Assembly (NCBI GenBank): GCA_026390015.1
Contig: JAPLGS010000162.1
Span: forward strand, 1-41,147
DNA length: 41,147 nucleotides
Direction of reading: 5' to 3'
Origin: Chloroflexota bacterium
GTDB taxonomy: Bacteria; Chloroflexota; Anaerolineae; Anaerolineales; Villigracilaceae
This document shows, piece by piece, positions 20,192 through 26,032 of the stretch (positions are counted from its first letter, which is position 1; each line of letters begins with the position of its first letter). The notes beneath the pieces were generated by a model. That model was not told the origin of the DNA. It saw nothing but the letters and a program-made list of their open reading frames with translations, and ran no database searches. Position numbers and translations under genes: made by a program.

Positions 20192-20863
20192 ATGTCAGAA
20201 ATTATGACCCGATCCATTCAAGATTATCTCAAGCATATTTATGAGCTTAATGAATATGGCAGCGCGGCCAGCACGAACGATCTTGCGGCGCGTCTCAACA
20301 TTGCTCCTGCTTCAGTAACGGGCATGTTGCAAAAATTAGCCAACTCCAAACCTGCGTTGGTTGTTTACAAAAAACACCAAGGCGCTACTCTCACAAGACC
20401 CGGCGAGAAAGCCGCGCTTGAGGTGATCCGCCATCACCGCCTGCTTGAAACTTTTCTCGTCACCACACTCGGCTATTCATGGGATGAAGTCCACTGTGAA
20501 GCGGATAAACTCGAGCATGTGATCTCGGAGGATTTTGAAGCGCGCATGGCTAAAGCATTGGGACATCCGACTCGCGACCCGCACGGCGAATTAATTCCAA
20601 CTGCGGATCTGGTCATGCCCGCCGACAAATCATGTCCGCTCGCTTCATTGCGGACCGACGACACCGCCACCGTCCGAAGAGTGTCAGACGACGACCCAGC
20701 CTTGCTCCGCCACCTGCGTAAGATCGGCGTTGTACCCGAGGTGAAGATCGTTGTCAAAAGTTATTCAGAGTTCGATGGGAATTTGACATTGCAAGTCGAA
20801 GGTCAAAAGTTAAATGTTGTGCTTGGGAAAGCTATAACAAGCCAGGTGTTTGTGGATAAATAA
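20192..20863 (+). CDS. DtxR/MntR-family metal-dependent regulator with FeoA-like C-terminal domain
   Basis: A 223-residue soluble regulator. Residues 5-65 form the winged helix (IQDYLKHIYELNEYGSAAST, then ARLNIAPASVTGMLQKLA). The metal-binding dimerisation domain (about 70-140) has HHRLLETFL and DEVHCEADKLEHVIS, then HPTRDPHGELIPT. The last 75 residues are an SH3-like/FeoA domain. Where DtxR has Met10 there is Asp, as in MntR, and the position of DtxR Cys102 is Asp, so manganese or mixed Fe/Mn sensing is possible. When metal-bound it should repress uptake genes such as the feoB genes downstream. AAAGGA precedes the ATG. A perfect inverted repeat lies in its promoter, so autoregulation is likely. 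Confidence 0.88.
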   Translation: MSEIMTRSIQDYLKHIYELNEYGSAASTNDLAARLNIAPASVTGMLQKLANSKPALVVYKKHQGATLTRPGEKAALEVIRHHRLLETFLVTTLGYSWDEVHCEADKLEHVISEDFEARMAKALGHPTRDPHGELIPTADLVMPADKSCPLASLRTDDTATVRRVSDDDPALLRHLRKIGVVPEVKIVVKSYSEFDGNLTLQVEGQKLNVVLGKAITSQVFVDK

Positions 20864-20981: not shown

Positions 20982-21581
20982 ATGAACGAAAATGTTTTTA
21001 GAATTTTAGCGGCCTTCATCCTTTTTACAGGGACAGGCATTTCAGTCTACTTCCGCCGCAAAGCAGATAAAGAAACAAGGGAAAAGATCTCACGCAGAGC
21101 GGACGGTTCTGCCATGATGAACATGATTAGATTCGGCGGGTTGATTCTGTGGATGAGTCCGCTTGTATATTTGATCAACCCGAACTGGATGAATTGGTCC
21201 AAAATTGGTCTGCCAGATTTGATCCGCTGGACGGGAGTTGGAATTGGCATTCTTTGTGTCATTGGAATTTACTGGCTGTTCAGCAGTATCGGCAGCGGCA
21301 TCACCCCCACCAGCGCCACACGCAAGGAACACAAACTTGTCACGCGCGGAATCTATCACTGGATACGACATCCGCTTTACACGATAGGATCATCTTTTAT
21401 TATTTCTTTTGGCATGATGGCAGATAATTGGTTCATCTCTGCGTTTGGATTTCTGGCCTTCATCTTAATGGCAGCCCGCACTCCAAAAGAAGAAGCCAAT
21501 CTCATTGAAAAATTCGGAGATGATTATAGAGAATACATGAAACACACAGGCCGTTTTTTACCTAAATTAGGAAGTAGATAA
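20982..21581 (+). CDS. Isoprenylcysteine carboxyl methyltransferase-like membrane protein
   Basis: A 199-residue integral membrane protein with about four to five helices (4-22, 47-68, 80-103, 130-160). The C-terminal core HKLVTRGIYHWIRHPLYTIG and KEEANLIEKFGDDYREYMKH is the hallmark of the ICMT/phospholipid N-methyltransferase superfamily: the first binds S-adenosylmethionine with RHP, and the second gives the conserved Glu-Glu and Tyr-x-x-Tyr. The bacterial substrate is generally unknown. It ends 3 nt before the membrane-anchored DtxR gene, so they are one operon. A role in the metal regulon is inferred from position only. AGAGG precedes the ATG. Confidence 0.8.
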   Translation: MNENVFRILAAFILFTGTGISVYFRRKADKETREKISRRADGSAMMNMIRFGGLILWMSPLVYLINPNWMNWSKIGLPDLIRWTGVGIGILCVIGIYWLFSSIGSGITPTSATRKEHKLVTRGIYHWIRHPLYTIGSSFIISFGMMADNWFISAFGFLAFILMAARTPKEEANLIEKFGDDYREYMKHTGRFLPKLGSR

Positions 21582-21584
21582 ATT

Positions 21585-22589
21585 ATGAACATAACAATTT
21601 GGCTGGTATTGACCATCATTCTGCTCGCTGTAATTTTCATTCCGCGCGTAGGATTAATCGCGATCTACAAAACCTATCGCATCGCGCAAGCGCGAGAGCA
21701 GGTTGAAGATGCGCTCAAACATCTGCTTGACCGCGAACAACAGGGGCGGCACGCATCACCCGAGTCTTTGGGCGGGACATTGGACATGCCGCGCGGCAAT
21801 GTCACGCGACTCATCGAAGATATGGAAACACAGGGTTTGCTTGAATCTCGCGGCACGAATCTATTTCTCACAACTGAAGGCGAACGTTGGGCTATGCACG
21901 TGGTCCGCGCGCATCGTTTGTGGGAACGCTATCTCACAGATGAAGCGCGAATGCCTCTCGAGAAAGTTCATGGCGAAGCGCAGCGCCGTGAACATTCATT
22001 CACAGATGCACAGCTCAATGATCTGGATGCGGCTCTGGGCCACCCGACGCGTGACCCGCATGGCGACCCCATCCCTACCCGTGAGGGGACTCTGCTCAAG
22101 GCGGAGGGAATGCCATTGACAGCGTGGCAGTCTGAAGGTCCAGCACGGATCGTGCACCTTGAGGATGAACCTGCACTCGCGTTTGAACAAATCCTGGCGG
22201 CAGGACTCCGTTTGGGGCAAACCATCCGAATCCTGGATCGAAACTCACAGCGGATTTTATTGACAGATGGCGAGACCGAGTACCGACTTGCGCCCGCAGT
22301 GGCTGCAAATGTGAGTGTAGCTGCGCTGCCTGAAAGTGAAATTGCAAAAGCGAGCGCGATCCCGCTGGTGGAGTTGCAGCATGACCAACGCGGAGAAATT
22401 GTGATCCTGGATGATGCGGTGCAGGGTTTTACTCGGAGACGATTTTTGGATCTGGGACTCACGCCCGGGACCACGATCTATCCTGAATTGCAAAACTTTT
22501 TCGGCGACCCGCGCGCCTATCGTGTGCGAGGAACATTGATCGCGCTGCGAAAAGATCAAGCGGCACAGATTTGGGTGAAGCCGATATAA
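21585..22589 (+). CDS. Membrane-anchored DtxR-like regulator with C-terminal FeoA domains
   Basis: A 334-residue fusion. Residues 3-27 (IWLVLTIILLAVIFIPRVGLI) are one membrane helix, absent from ordinary DtxR proteins. Residues 35-100 are a winged helix (LKHLLDREQQGRHASPESLG, NVTRLIEDMETQGLLE). The DtxR metal/dimer domain follows (AHRLWERYLTDE, EKVHGEAQRREHSF, HPTRDPHGDPIPTREG). There are then two FeoA/SH3-like units, about 180-250 and 260-334; the second (FTRRRFLDLGLTPGTTIYP) is the clear FeoA signature. Because FeoB downstream has no separate FeoA partner, the protein could serve both as a membrane-side metal sensor and as the FeoA subunit. That idea is inference. Whether the winged helix still binds DNA is unknown. 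Confidence 0.8.
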   Translation: MNITIWLVLTIILLAVIFIPRVGLIAIYKTYRIAQAREQVEDALKHLLDREQQGRHASPESLGGTLDMPRGNVTRLIEDMETQGLLESRGTNLFLTTEGERWAMHVVRAHRLWERYLTDEARMPLEKVHGEAQRREHSFTDAQLNDLDAALGHPTRDPHGDPIPTREGTLLKAEGMPLTAWQSEGPARIVHLEDEPALAFEQILAAGLRLGQTIRILDRNSQRILLTDGETEYRLAPAVAANVSVAALPESEIAKASAIPLVELQHDQRGEIVILDDAVQGFTRRRFLDLGLTPGTTIYPELQNFFGDPRAYRVRGTLIALRKDQAAQIWVKPI

Positions 22590-22667
22590 GTACACACGAA
22601 AACAAGTAGACTAGTATTAAAGCACGTGCGTACTTGTTTACATGTTTACCTTTTTCTATTTACGATT
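22588..22667 (+). repeat. Inverted array of degenerate octamers, array 1 (upstream of feoB-N)
   Basis: Reads in a constant 8-bp phase. First come AAGTACAC, ACGAAAAC, AAGTAGAC and the weaker TAGTATTA, then a centre, then GCGTACTT, GTTTACAT, GTTTACCT. The left consensus AAGTANAC is the reverse complement of the right consensus GTNTACTT, so the array can fold on itself. It fills the gap from the stop of the anchored regulator to the feoB-N ribosome binding site. Confidence 0.65.
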
Positions 22668-22682
22668 TCGAAAAGAGGAAAA

Positions 22683-23519
22683 ATGACAAACACTAAAACC
22701 GTACTCCCCACCGAACATTGCGAAACCTGCCCCGCGTTCACGCAGTTGGAGCAGATGGGAATCAAGGTCGGAGATTTTGACCGCGTGATCGCGCTGGCTG
22801 GGAATCCCAACACAGGCAAATCCACTTTGTTCAATGCGCTGACTGGTTTGAAGCAGCACACAGGTAATTGGCCTGGAAAAACAGTCACCCGCGCCGAAGG
22901 CGGATTCGAATTCAACAAGATACGCTACAAGCTGGTTGACCTGCCTGGAACGTATTCGCTGCTCTCTGCTTCGCAAGATGAAGAGGTGGCGCGTGATTTT
23001 ATTCTTTTTGGCCAACCAAGCTGCACCATCGTCGTGACAGACGCGACCTCATTGGAGCGAAATCTAAATCTTGTTTTGCAGGTGATGGAGATCACAGAGA
23101 ATGTTGTGGTCGCCATCAACTTAATGGATGAAGCAAAAAGAAAAGGACTCGAGGTTGATCCGCGTTCATTGAGCCGCGATCTGGGCATCCCTGCAATCGC
23201 GATCACTGCGCGAAGCGGCGAAGGCATTCATACTTTATTGGGCGCTGTCGCAGATGTGATAGAAGGAAATATAGTGACCAAACCCCTGCGCGTGGGCGGC
23301 ACACCCGAATTCCAAAAAGCAGTGAACGAACTCGTGCCGATGATCGAACAAATGGCGCCTGGCATTCCAAATGCACGCTGGCTTGCGATCCGTTTACTGG
23401 ATGGCGATGCGCGGGTGCAGAAAGCCCTGTCCACGGGCGAGCTGGCCGATATTGTCTCACGTCAACAACGCGCGGATGTACAGTTCAGCGGCAAGATGTC
23501 GGTTGAAGGTAGACAGTGA
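22683..23519 (+). CDS. feoB: FeoB GTPase domain as a separate protein (split FeoB, N part)
   Basis: A 278-residue cytosolic G protein. Motifs: G1 GNPNTGKST (40-48), G2 region GNWPGKTVTR, G3 DLPG (86-89), G4 NLMD (146-149), and G5-type ITARSGEG. The following helical S-domain (about 200-270) is present. There is an unusual N-terminal extension of about 33 residues with a CETCPAF motif that might bind iron or zinc. GTP binding here normally gates ferrous iron import by the FeoB membrane domain, which follows as a separate gene. The ATG at 22683 is chosen for its AGAGGAA site; earlier frames lie in repeat DNA. The last codons (EGRQ and stop) are made of the octamer repeat, so the C-terminus was shaped by the repeat. 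Confidence 0.9.
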   Translation: MTNTKTVLPTEHCETCPAFTQLEQMGIKVGDFDRVIALAGNPNTGKSTLFNALTGLKQHTGNWPGKTVTRAEGGFEFNKIRYKLVDLPGTYSLLSASQDEEVARDFILFGQPSCTIVVTDATSLERNLNLVLQVMEITENVVVAINLMDEAKRKGLEVDPRSLSRDLGIPAIAITARSGEGIHTLLGAVADVIEGNIVTKPLRVGGTPEFQKAVNELVPMIEQMAPGIPNARWLAIRLLDGDARVQKALSTGELADIVSRQQRADVQFSGKMSVEGRQ

Positions 23520-23635
23520 GGAGGTAGACAGGAAAACAGGTATACAGGTAAACAAGCGGTGCTCGTTCTGCCTATACCTGTCTACGTGTCTTCTTCTACA
23601 CCTTTCTTCTTGTGTACTTGTGTACGCATTTACCA
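23507..23635 (+). repeat. Inverted array of degenerate octamers, array 2 (at the feoB split point)
   Basis: Left side: AGGTAGAC at 23507, then from 23522 in exact 8-bp steps AGGTAGAC, AGGAAAAC, AGGTATAC, AGGTAAAC. Right side from 23572 in exact 8-bp steps: CTATACCT, GTCTACGT, GTCTTCTT, CTACACCT, TTCTTCTT, GTGTACTT, GTGTACGC, ATTTACCA. The right consensus GTNTACCT is the reverse complement of the left AGGTANAC. The first unit overlaps the last codons of the GTPase gene; the last ends just before the ribosome binding site of the permease gene. Confidence 0.75.
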
Positions 23636-23647
23636 AAGGAAAAAACA

Positions 23648-25036
23648 ATGGAAGCGAATGAAATTTTAGCAAAAGCAGAATCGTTACGAAACAATCTCTC
23701 AACGGGTTTTCGCGATGAGATCGTGAAGTCACTTTATACAGAAGCGGAAAATATCGCGAAGCGCGCGGTAAAGAGTACGTCGGATAAAAAATATGATTTC
23801 GATCAAAAGATAGACCGCCTCGTCACATCACCCTATACGGGTTTACCCATTATGCTGCTGCTGCTTGGTCTGATCATCTGGTTGACAGTTTCAGGCGCGA
23901 ATGTAGTTTCGAGTTGGATCGCAGTTGTGTTATTTGGTATCGGCGATTATGGACGCGCTCTCTTTAATCAGATCGGAATACCCTGGTGGATCACGGGCTT
24001 CCTTTGGGATGGGGTCTATCTCGGACTGGCATGGGTTGTCAGTGTGATGCTGCCGCCAATGATGATCTTCTTCCCCGCCTTCACATTTTTGGAAGACCTC
24101 GGCTACCTGCCGCGCGTGGCATTCAACATGGATTGGATGTTCAAGAAGACAGGTGCGCACGGCAAACAATCCCTGACCATGGCAATGGGATTCGGATGCA
24201 ACGCGGCAGGCGTGATCGCAACCCGCGTGATCGACTCTCCGCGTGAACGCTTGATCGCCATCCTGACCAATAACTTTGTCCCATGCAACGGGCGCTTCCC
24301 GACTTTAATTATGCTTGCCACTGTTTTCGTGGCAGCGTCCTTCCCCCCAGCCTTGACCTCCCTGATCGCCGCGGCAACAGTTGTCGGCGTGGTATTGATC
24401 GGTGTGATGTTCACATTCATCGCTTCGTGGGTCTTATCCAGAACCGTCTTGAAAGGCGAAGCATCTGCATTCACATTGGAACTGCCACCCTACCGCAGAC
24501 CGAACGTCAGCCGCATTTTATACACATCCATCATTGACCGCACCATTTTTGTGTTGTGGCGCGCCATGCAAACCGCCGCCCCCGCAGGTGCGATCATTTG
24601 GGTTTTGGCAAACATCCCCATCGCTGATTCAAATTTAGCGCGCGCAATCGCTGATTGGCTTAATCCATTTGGATTGTTGTTGGGACTCGACGGCGTGATC
24701 ATCCTTGCATACATCATCGCTATTCCCGCGAATGAAATTGTCGTGCCAACCATGATGATGGTTTACATGGGCGCAGGCATGATGATCAACGGGCCGACCA
24801 ACAACACCGAAATTTTTAACCTGCTCGTGAACGGTAATGGCTGGACTATGCTGACGGCGGTCAACTTGATGTTGTTCGCGCTATTGCATAATCCGTGCGC
24901 CACAACGATCATGACCATCTATAAAGAAACCAAGTCACTGAAATGGGCAACATTGAGCGTGGTGATGACTCTCGGCACAGCAATAGTTGTCACCTTCCTC
25001 ACCGCCAGCATCGCAAGATTGTTGGGCTGGGTATAG
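23648..25036 (+). CDS. feoB: FeoB membrane permease domain as a separate protein (split FeoB, C part)
   Basis: A 462-residue ferrous iron permease lacking the GTPase. An N-terminal cytosolic helix region (1-60) is followed by paired Gate domains. Gate 1 contains GFGCNAAGVIATRVI (Cys184), and NNFVPCNGRFPTLIML (Cys213) follows; these cysteine motifs line the proposed iron path. FFPAFTFLEDLGYLPRVAF, ANEIVVPTMMMVY and FALLHNPCATTIMTIYKETK are further FeoB landmarks. Around eight to ten membrane helices are expected. It works with the GTPase encoded just upstream; the two parts together are about 740 residues, as in a normal FeoB. The ATG at 23648 has AAAGGAAAA upstream. Confidence 0.93.
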   Translation: MEANEILAKAESLRNNLSTGFRDEIVKSLYTEAENIAKRAVKSTSDKKYDFDQKIDRLVTSPYTGLPIMLLLLGLIIWLTVSGANVVSSWIAVVLFGIGDYGRALFNQIGIPWWITGFLWDGVYLGLAWVVSVMLPPMMIFFPAFTFLEDLGYLPRVAFNMDWMFKKTGAHGKQSLTMAMGFGCNAAGVIATRVIDSPRERLIAILTNNFVPCNGRFPTLIMLATVFVAASFPPALTSLIAAATVVGVVLIGVMFTFIASWVLSRTVLKGEASAFTLELPPYRRPNVSRILYTSIIDRTIFVLWRAMQTAAPAGAIIWVLANIPIADSNLARAIADWLNPFGLLLGLDGVIILAYIIAIPANEIVVPTMMMVYMGAGMMINGPTNNTEIFNLLVNGNGWTMLTAVNLMLFALLHNPCATTIMTIYKETKSLKWATLSVVMTLGTAIVVTFLTASIARLLGWV

Positions 25037-25041
25037 CAACC

Positions 25042-25076
25042 AAGGTGACAGTCACCTAAAAGGTGACTGTCACCTT
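25042..25076. repeat. Nested 16-bp palindrome between feoB-C and the CDF gene
   Basis: AAGGTGACAGTCACCT (25042-25057), loop AAA, AGGTGACTGTCACCTT (25061-25076): a perfect 16-bp stem with a 3-nt loop. Each arm is itself a palindrome (AGGTGAC-N-GTCACCT). It can act as a terminator of the feo operon, as a cruciform, or as a double operator. It overlaps the -35 region of the CDF promoter. Confidence 0.8.
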
Positions 25077-25081
25077 ATAAT
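25076..25081 (+). promoter_or_regulatory. -10 box of a possible leaderless promoter for the CDF gene
   Basis: A perfect TATAAT ends 6 nt before the ATG at 25088, so transcription would start at or next to the start codon. No ribosome binding site is present in the short gap. The -35 region is occupied by the nested palindrome and shows no TTGACA match, which would fit an activator- or repressor-controlled promoter. Confidence 0.45.
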
Positions 25082-25087
25082 GTCGAC

Positions 25088-26032
25088 ATGCAGCACTCGC
25101 ACATCCACTCCCACCTCGGCGACCTCGCCAATCAAACCACAAAGCGACTCGCGCTCTCGCTAGCATTAACAGCAGCGTTCGTAGTTATTGAAATCATCGC
25201 GGGGATTTTTGGAAACAGTCTGGCGCTCCTCACCGACGCGGCGCACAACTTTACAGACGTGATCGCGCTCGGATTAAGTTGGTATGCGGTAAAACTTGCC
25301 ACACAACCTGCTCATGCAGGTAAGACTTTCGGCTATCATCGCGCGGGAATTTTAGTAGCGTTGATAAATTCCACAACCTTGATTTTGATTGCATTGGGAA
25401 TTTTCTACGAGGCATATCATCGCTTCCTCTCTCCGCCCGAAGTTAATTCAGCGATTCTGATAGGCGTCGGCACTTTGGCATTTCTGATCAACGCGGGTAC
25501 GGCATGGCTGGTCAAAAGCGGAAGCGAACACGATCTAAATTTACGCAGTACATTTCTGCATTTGATGGGTGACGTACTATCCACGATAGGCGCGGTCATT
25601 GCTGGAATCATCATCGCGTTCACAAATTGGAATTGGCTTGATCCGCTGGTGAGTGTGATGATCGGAGCGTTTATTTTATGGAACGCATGGGGCATCCTGC
25701 GGCAGGCAACCAACATACTACTTGAAAACGCTCCCGAAAGTTTTGACATAAACTCGATGGTGAATGACCTGCTCAAGGTGGAAGGCGTGCGGGATGTTCA
25801 CGATCTGCACGTCTGGAGCATCAACGAAAATCTGCGTGCGCTCTCCGCGCACATCCTCACAGACGATGTACTGGTCAGCGCGGGGTTGCCAATTCAACGT
25901 AACCTGAATGAAATTCTGGCGCACAAGTACAACATCCGCCACGCAACGCTGCAATTGGAATGCGAATGTATCGGGAAGAATTTATTGTATTGCGATATTC
26001 ATGAAGCAACTCATCCACACGAGAAAATATAA
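25088..26032 (+). CDS. Cation diffusion facilitator (CDF), zinc-type efflux protein
   Basis: A 314-residue CDF family exporter, similar to CzcD/ZitB. A His-rich N-terminus (MQHSHIHSHLGD) comes before six helices. The metal site in the membrane uses HxxxD in helix 2 (H53-NFT-D57 in LTDAAHNFTDV) and HxxxD in helix 5 (H158-LMG-D162), the zinc-specific arrangement. A C-terminal cytoplasmic domain (about 205-314: VRDVHDLHVWSINENLRALS) has the usual dimerising metal-binding fold. It exchanges cytosolic Zn2+, and perhaps Fe2+/Mn2+, for protons. It follows the iron uptake genes, separated by a strong palindrome, and probably has its own promoter. Confidence 0.93.
   Translation: MQHSHIHSHLGDLANQTTKRLALSLALTAAFVVIEIIAGIFGNSLALLTDAAHNFTDVIALGLSWYAVKLATQPAHAGKTFGYHRAGILVALINSTTLILIALGIFYEAYHRFLSPPEVNSAILIGVGTLAFLINAGTAWLVKSGSEHDLNLRSTFLHLMGDVLSTIGAVIAGIIIAFTNWNWLDPLVSVMIGAFILWNAWGILRQATNILLENAPESFDINSMVNDLLKVEGVRDVHDLHVWSINENLRALSAHILTDDVLVSAGLPIQRNLNEILAHKYNIRHATLQLECECIGKNLLYCDIHEATHPHEKI

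What the first reader, a model, noticed from the sequence alone, without database searches (positions are those of the whole stretch)
22588..23635. Inverted arrays of a degenerate octamer flanking the feoB GTPase gene and lying exactly at the FeoB split
Both gaps (22588-22667 and 23507-23635) consist of 8-bp units: first AGGTANAC/AAGTANAC, then, after a centre, its reverse complement GTNTACCT/GTNTACTT. In array 2, four left units and eight right units keep a strict 8-bp step. The left part of array 2 overlaps the last codons and stop of the GTPase gene, and the right part ends at the permease ribosome binding site. The repeat may have inserted into an ancestral single feoB and split it, or it may act as an RNA structure or a multi-site binding array controlling the two halves. 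I know of no named element with this octamer architecture.
Basis: partly seen in the sequence, partly recalled or inferred. Interest (0 to 1): 0.75.

Follow-up and report, generated by a model that had tools for sequence, protein, structure and literature searches.

The report
Swappable hairpins between operon genes
The odd 8-letter repeats around feoB are two of many short inverted arrays that can fold into hairpins between neighbouring genes of uncultured Anaerolineales bacteria; at several of these places related species also have a hairpin, but built from quite different repeat letters.

Summary
Both feo gaps hold convergent arrays of ANGTANAC, part of a dispersed family: 61 exact two-unit hits in this genome against 1 for the reversed pattern, 0 to 304 in congeners. 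The repeat did not split feoB: nine congeners have the split with gaps of 2-13 nt. Paired arrays face each other 109 to 1, 14 tandem neighbours apart, mostly in co-directional gaps and near the upstream stop codon. Free positions do not pair between arms above chance, and elements are not copies of one another. At three further octamer sites 30 of 30, 27 of 27 and 26 of 29 congener gaps fold better than shuffles (z below -2), built from many unrelated repeat kinds. But hairpins are common in these genomes: 64 of 88 other co-directional gaps in the same loci also reach z below -2, and the feo gaps only 8 of 20 and 6 of 21. Best reading: intercistronic RNA stem-loops like cyanobacterial STRR hairpins or REPs, whose sequence is exchangeable. 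How uncopied units share one consensus is unexplained.

The parts
22588..22611 (+). array 1, left arm: three units of ANGTANAC, beginning inside the stop codon of the feoA-type gene
22612..22627 (.). array 1, centre
22628..22651 (-). array 1, right arm: three reverse-complement units
23507..23514 (+). extra forward unit, out of 8-bp step, overlapping the last codons of the GTPase gene
23522..23553 (+). array 2, left arm: four forward units in strict 8-bp step
23554..23571 (.). array 2, centre
23572..23635 (-). array 2, right arm: eight reverse units in step, three of them degenerate, ending at the ribosome-binding site
21585..22589 (+). gene with a FeoA domain and an iron-dependent-repressor C domain (upstream cistron)
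22683..23519 (+). FeoB GTPase (G domain) gene
23648..25036 (+). FeoB permease (Gate, FeoB_C) gene
25042..25076 (.). third hairpin, a perfect 16-bp stem of unrelated sequence (AAGGTGACAGTCACCT) after the permease stop
   Evidence: z -7.5

Best explanation
The two arrays are intercistronic stem-loops of the feo mRNA. The forward arm starts at or near the upstream stop codon; the reverse arm ends before the next gene's ribosome-binding site. The six fixed letters of each octamer can pair between the arms; the two free letters match only at chance level and drift. SHOWN: a dispersed family of such elements, their convergent polarity, their place in operon gaps, folding hairpins at orthologous gaps built from different repeat kinds, and compensatory changes in one hairpin group at one such gap. 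INFERRED: that selection acts on the RNA hairpin (differential stability, processing or attenuation between cistrons, as proposed for REPs and cyanobacterial STRR hairpins). NOT SHOWN: transcription, any expression effect, any bound protein, or how arrays with one consensus but unrelated free letters arise.
For: gapdh-pgk gap: 30 of 30 congener loci z below -2, 29 of 30 below -3; co-directional gaps of 45-120 bp in G017: 27 of 69 and 17 of 69. metY-metA: 27 of 27 gaps under 300 nt, 3 of 30 loci left out. fer4-apbC: 26 of 29 adjacent gaps of 30 loci. At each site several unrelated repeat kinds serve, assigned by eye. In the GTAGGGGC-type group at gapdh-pgk 10 of 12 pairs show changes on both sides that keep the pair. 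Context: 75 of 82 distinct paired elements between co-directional genes, 6 convergent, 1 divergent (gaps available 906, 166, 158). Orthologous elements of G000 and G001: fixed positions 554 of 606 identical, free 107 of 202; fourfold sites of feoB 199 of 349.
Against: Hairpins are common in operon gaps of these genomes anyway: other co-directional gaps of 25-300 nt in the same loci reach z below -2 in 39 of 51 (pgk loci), 4 of 11 (metA) and 21 of 26 (apbC), 64 of 88 in all, so part of the three-site result is background. Free positions do not pair above chance; in the seven octamer rows at gapdh-pgk only 1 of 16 pairs is doubly changed. The feo gaps are weak: z below -2 in 8 of 20 (gap 1) and 6 of 21 (gap 2); array 1 alone z -1.7. 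Some arrays have one arm and no structure (G005 gap 2, z +0.6). Non-orthologous elements also agree at 87% of fixed and 45% of free positions once aligned, so the constraint estimate is soft. Many of the genomes are fragmented metagenome bins.
Confidence: 0.5

Rival explanations
1. Protein-binding arrays: a DNA-binding protein that reads 7-8 bp steps cooperatively (ribbon-helix-helix proteins such as Omega bind unspaced 7-bp repeats in direct or inverted order) holds the six fixed letters by selection; genomes with different binders have different unit dialects.
For: Same six fixed and two free positions throughout; free positions are 59-74% purine in unit coordinates in both arms; Omega arrays of 7-10 heptads in both orientations. 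RHH_1 genes in 7 of 10 octamer-rich (30 or more hits) and 5 of 27 octamer-poor genomes, Fisher p 0.006, rank test p 0.008.
Against: The RHH genes fall into several non-orthologous groups; none of the 16 stretches examined (18 matches listed), about 5 kb or less each, holds a two-unit array; the rich genomes G009, G019, G036 have no RHH_1 match. Arrays sit inside operons, hardly ever at divergent promoters. Different repeat kinds at the same sites share a hairpin, not a word.
Confidence: 0.17
2. End-extension scars: both 3' ends at a break are extended with the same short degenerate unit by a template-using polymerase or reverse transcriptase and then joined, which gives convergent arms with independent free letters.
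For: Convergent 109 to 1; free letters independent between arms and, in G000/G001, between neighbouring units; no octamer element is a copy of another; one element with a different inner repeat kind (L038). Genomes with reverse transcriptase genes have higher octamer counts by rank test, p 0.007.
Against: Fixed positions are kept across species more than fourfold sites; unpaired single arms in co-directional gaps run in sense 40 to 8, where both orientations should be equal; reverse transcriptase genes occur in 8 of 10 rich but also 12 of 27 poor genomes, Fisher p 0.07, and have no match in rich G009 and G033.
Confidence: 0.13
3. Repeats of slippage origin, or other small repeats, that simply pile up in operon gaps able to bear them, with no function for the hairpin.
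For: Hairpins are frequent in other gaps of the same loci, 64 of 88. Local duplication in long arms: neighbour match 0.37-0.51 against about 0.31 in GTDB stretches chosen for four-unit arms; perfect single-unit arrays in Bacteroidales records.
Against: Little neighbour similarity in G000/G001; inverted geometry; compensatory changes in one group; focal gaps folded 83 of 85 against 64 of 88 for neighbours.
Confidence: 0.12
4. Ordinary mobile palindromes (MITE or REP/RAYT type) that are copied around the genome.
For: Copy number 0 to 304 within one genus and 0 against 1271 in another; one 70-bp nonamer array in G017 occurs twice within a larger near-identical element.
Against: Among 40 octamer elements the best within-genome pair by free letters scores 4.6 against 4.7 expected at random; no common full-length sequence or GTAG tag seen in those printed.
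Confidence: 0.07

Closest known systems
STRR, short tandemly repeated repetitive sequences of filamentous cyanobacteria (for example between hupS and hupL)
   Same: Short tandem units between genes, able to form a hairpin, suspected role in transcript stability or translation coupling (PMC2670836, passages)
   Different: Usually 7 bp; here 8 bp with two free positions, convergent arms, Chloroflexota; different repeat kinds at one and the same gap in related species
TAACTGA direct repeats of marine Beggiatoaceae
   Same: Intergenic short-unit arrays in a preferred orientation to genes; 169 direct sets in one genome (PMC4679880, abstract and one section)
   Different: Fixed heptamer, direct (one inverted set), near start codons
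REP / GTAG palindromic repeats
   Same: Small palindromes, family size varying between relatives, Chloroflexi included, possible RNA role (PMC3733652, passages)
   Different: REPs carry a GTAG or CGTC tag and a recognisable family sequence; the octamer elements printed have neither. The GTAGGGGC hairpins at the same sites look closer to REPs
parS heptad arrays of the Omega (RHH ParB) protein, plasmid pSM19035
   Same: Consecutive short units in direct and inverted order, at least four needed for full ParA activation (PMC9499535, passages)
   Different: Promoter or centromere sites with a known binder; no binder identified here

Membership tests
STRR | tandem units of 7 bp | tested here: not met
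   octamer units in both window arrays; heptamer inverted arrays do occur in the same genomes
STRR | intergenic and able to form a hairpin | tested here: met
   array 1 only weakly (z -1.7)
STRR | descent from cyanobacterial STRRs | not tested
   no cyanobacterial sequence compared
REP / RAYT elements | terminal GTAG or CGTC tag and common family sequence | tested here: not met
   elements printed; no pair alike beyond chance
REP / RAYT elements | associated RAYT transposase | not tested
   no family search spent on it
MITE or other copied mobile element | copies similar to each other along their length | tested here: not met
   best within-genome pair equals random expectation, 40 elements of G000, G001, G017
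Intrinsic terminator | G+C stem followed by a T run | tested here: not met
   consensus scan of 22500-23700 finds none on the + strand; two on the - strand lie inside the GTPase gene
RHH-bound array (Omega/MetJ type) | a cognate RHH protein | tested here: inconclusive
   association without orthology
Covarying structured RNA | compensatory changes in the stem | tested here: inconclusive
   octamer group 1 of 16 pairs; GTAGGGGC group 10 of 12 pairs
Known Rfam RNA | match above gathering score | tested here: not met
   four matches listed in 21000-25500, all far below gathering score

The most novel reading that the evidence does not exclude
Each lineage of these bacteria writes its operon junctions in its own short-repeat dialect: a dedicated factor, an enzyme that makes the units or a protein that selects them, imposes one degenerate word on many independently built, convergent arrays. 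A change of factor then rewrites arrays at the same junctions into another word while a hairpin remains. Nothing here excludes it: octamer units share six letters without being copies of each other between neighbours (G000/G001), between arms or between elements.
Probability: 0.18. Interest if true: 0.88.

Novelty: new variant of a known kind. Interest (0 to 1): 0.6.

Why it matters
Operon gaps are usually treated as spacer. Here, within one genus, the gaps gapdh-pgk, metY-metA and fer4-apbC hold a hairpin in nearly every species examined while its sequence belongs to unrelated repeat kinds. That is a natural experiment on what an intercistronic hairpin must preserve, if anything; it offers a common frame for scattered observations (STRRs, TAACTGA repeats, REPs) and raises a concrete puzzle: how many arrays share one degenerate word without being copied from each other.

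Tried and rejected
Split by insertion: rejected, split without repeats in nine congeners.

Covarying hairpin arms as the cause of the octamer pattern: free letters match between arms 13/74 and 18/74 (0.30 and 0.28 expected) in three genomes and 90/334 (0.269 against 0.294 expected) in GTDB stretches; energies no better than phase-preserving within-arm shuffles on average, with a few single exceptions such as L016.

Transposed copies: rejected for octamers. Snap-back copying of one arm: rejected by the same arm data and by polarity.

RHH binder and reverse transcriptase as linked genes: weak, uneven associations. Rfam and terminator scans: nothing usable. Stop-codon supply as the general reason for polarity: in 63 of 192 sense arrays with a long reading frame running in, the gene's stop ends at +6, +14, +22, +30 or +38 of the array, that is on the TAA/TAG of a unit; 16 of 110 unpartnered reverse arrays have such a frame. 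But by my reading of the units, kinds such as GTTRCAR and GTCRAAR carry no sense stop and still run purine-first.

The first metY-metA measurement used a metA start inside the array and cut the gaps short, so that 15 of 28 looked unpaired and 6 too short; one search repeats it from MPVK and replaces it. One search leaves out 3 of 30 loci: two not adjacent and G023 with a 405-nt gap (z +0.4); for G025 the start codon reads AGG, so that gap's end is uncertain.

The same call showed that one element is shared by the sets (hence 109, not 110).

Virus contigs: 19 stretches with three units, mostly direct arrays, looked at once, not pursued. Repeat-kind labels at the sites are by eye. Five gaps were compared across congeners in all; all five are reported.

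Full report
CHECK. The window lies in G000:C47, a 4.31 Mb genome in 177 contigs. Relatives include Anaerolineales bins: G017, for example, has a 3,100,835-bp contig, the length of JABFGC010000002.1, Chloroflexi bacterium CFX11. Both feo gaps hold forward then reverse octamers as described, apart from one out-of-step unit at 23507 and three poor units in the right arm of array 2. The unit is ANGTANAC; positions 2 and 6 take all four bases, with 59-74% purines by arm and position.

FAMILY. Exact ANGTANAC x2 hits 61 times in G000 against 1 for the reversed pattern. Among 61 genomes (G000 and 60 relatives) 36 have at least one hit, single hits being near the control level; counts run from 0 to 304 within the genus. 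In a class-wide sample 89 of 396 have a hit; G209 has 1271 and its congener G253 none. In 0.40 Mb of contiguous G017, taken without regard to repeats, a detector blind to the unit finds 16 inverted arrays, mostly of period 7-9; in G021, G032 and G016 it finds 5, 4 and 8 in 0.14, 0.12 and 0.14 Mb; the Markov controls of these four gave 0 rows. Octamers are thus one dialect among heptamer, octamer and nonamer arrays. In six genomes, stretches chosen around octamers included, 78 of 86 arrays of period 7-9 have the more purine-rich arm first.

GEOMETRY. Neighbouring octamer arrays within 60 bp face each other 40 times, face away once and run in tandem once in G000, G001 and G017; in 120 GTDB stretches 70 face each other, 0 face away, 13 run in tandem; one element is common to both sets. 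Of 82 distinct paired elements with flanking genes, 75 lie between co-directional genes (10 of them mostly overlapping a called gene), 6 between convergent, 1 between divergent genes; gaps in the same stretches number 906, 166, 158. The median distance from upstream stop to element is 1 nt (65 elements). Unpaired arms of four or more units in co-directional gaps run in sense 40 times and antisense 8 times; those overlapping called genes 10 and 8. Some may have a partner arm too degenerate for the detector.

NOT COPIES. In G000 and G001 neighbouring units agree at the free positions in 66 and 71 of 234 cases, as expected from base frequencies; at two and three units' distance up to 0.36 against 0.29. 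Between arms they agree no more than chance. Elements within a genome are not copies. In GTDB stretches selected for four-unit arms there is local tandem duplication. Seven gaps orthologous between G000 and G001 hold octamer arrays in both: fixed positions agree in 554 of 606 comparisons, free in 107 of 202, counted in both directions; fourfold sites of feoB agree in 199 of 349. Common descent is suggested for one element by a shared deviant unit and a shared centre. But non-orthologous pairs reach 87% and 45% after alignment, so the free positions are near saturation.

feo SITES. In 20 loci (G000 included) with feoA next to the GTPase gene, 11 have a short-repeat array in gap 1, of about five kinds by eye; 8 of 20 fold with z below -2, 6 have gaps of 9-27 nt, 3 overlap. 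In gap 2, 6 of 21 fold with z below -2 and 9 of 21 have gaps of 2-13 nt. The split therefore does not depend on the arrays.

THREE OTHER SITES. I picked G000 octamer elements beside well-conserved genes and read the same gap in congeners. gapdh-pgk: 30 of 30 loci with z below -2; octamers in about seven, simple GTAGGGGC-type hairpins in about twelve, several heptamers and others. metY-metA: 27 of 27 gaps under 300 nt, built of GGATGAA, ATGCAGA, octamer, GTAGGGGC and other kinds; 3 of 30 loci left out. fer4-apbC: 26 of 29 adjacent gaps, two without and one of 10 nt; octamer, CACRAAGG, GTCATTGCGAGG and others. The GTAGGGGC-type group of twelve at gapdh-pgk shows double changes that keep the pair in 10 of 12 pairs; the octamer group of seven shares a core stem with little variation and 1 of 16 pairs doubly changed.

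CONTROLS. Co-directional gaps of 45-120 bp in G017: 27 of 69 with z below -2, 17 of 69 below -3. Other co-directional gaps of 25-300 nt in the very loci used for the three sites: 39 of 51, 4 of 11 and 21 of 26 (64 of 88) below -2, 36 further gaps being under 25 nt. These neighbours are themselves orthologous sets, not independent gaps. The focal gaps that were folded stand at 83 of 85. So hairpins are widespread in operon gaps of this genus; the octamer sites are at the upper end, and site-specific selection is less certain than the focal counts alone suggest.

INTERPRETATION. What recurs at these sites is a hairpin between two cistrons; what differs is its sequence kind. That points to the mRNA and to the kind of role discussed for REPs and STRRs. 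If the stem is what matters, fixed letters are held because they pair and free letters drift because they mostly do not; no special binder is then needed for maintenance. This does not explain how independent arrays come to share one word, nor the strict polarity, nor single-arm arrays. Those facts keep a specific factor or a templating mechanism alive.

NOVELTY. Short-repeat hairpins between genes are known in cyanobacteria, so this is a new variant of a known kind; the octamer dialect, the polarity and the site-wise exchange of kinds did not appear in the listings of the papers searched.

Noticed in passing
window 25042-25076: A third hairpin of the operon, a perfect 16-bp stem AAGGTGACAGTCACCT, directly after the permease stop; unrelated to the octamer (z -7.5).
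   Followed up: partly
L038:4928-5021 (G000) and L131 (G001): Octamer arms enclose a centre of a different repeat type (GTGTCGAAAGTGTC), shared by both species: a nested element.
   Followed up: partly
L019:5981-6038 (G000:C100): The one divergent (reverse arm first) octamer pair seen in G000, G001 and G017.
   Followed up: no
L147:14943-15012 and L160:9475-9545 (G017): Two near-identical copies of an inverted nonamer array, each inside a larger palindromic element with matching flanks: this kind, unlike the octamers, seems to move as a unit.
   Followed up: partly
L125 (G001), orthologue of L011:7073-7138: An insert of roughly 125 bp with its own palindromes sits between the two octamer arms in G001 and is absent in G000.
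   Followed up: no
   Followed up: partly
window 20192-20863 and 21585-22589: Two nearby genes each join a FeoA domain to an iron-dependent-repressor domain.
   Followed up: no
L362-L391, L422-L451: Other co-directional gaps in the pgk and apbC loci also fold strongly in most congeners (39 of 51 and 21 of 26): operon gaps of 25 nt or more in this genus often hold a hairpin.
   Followed up: partly
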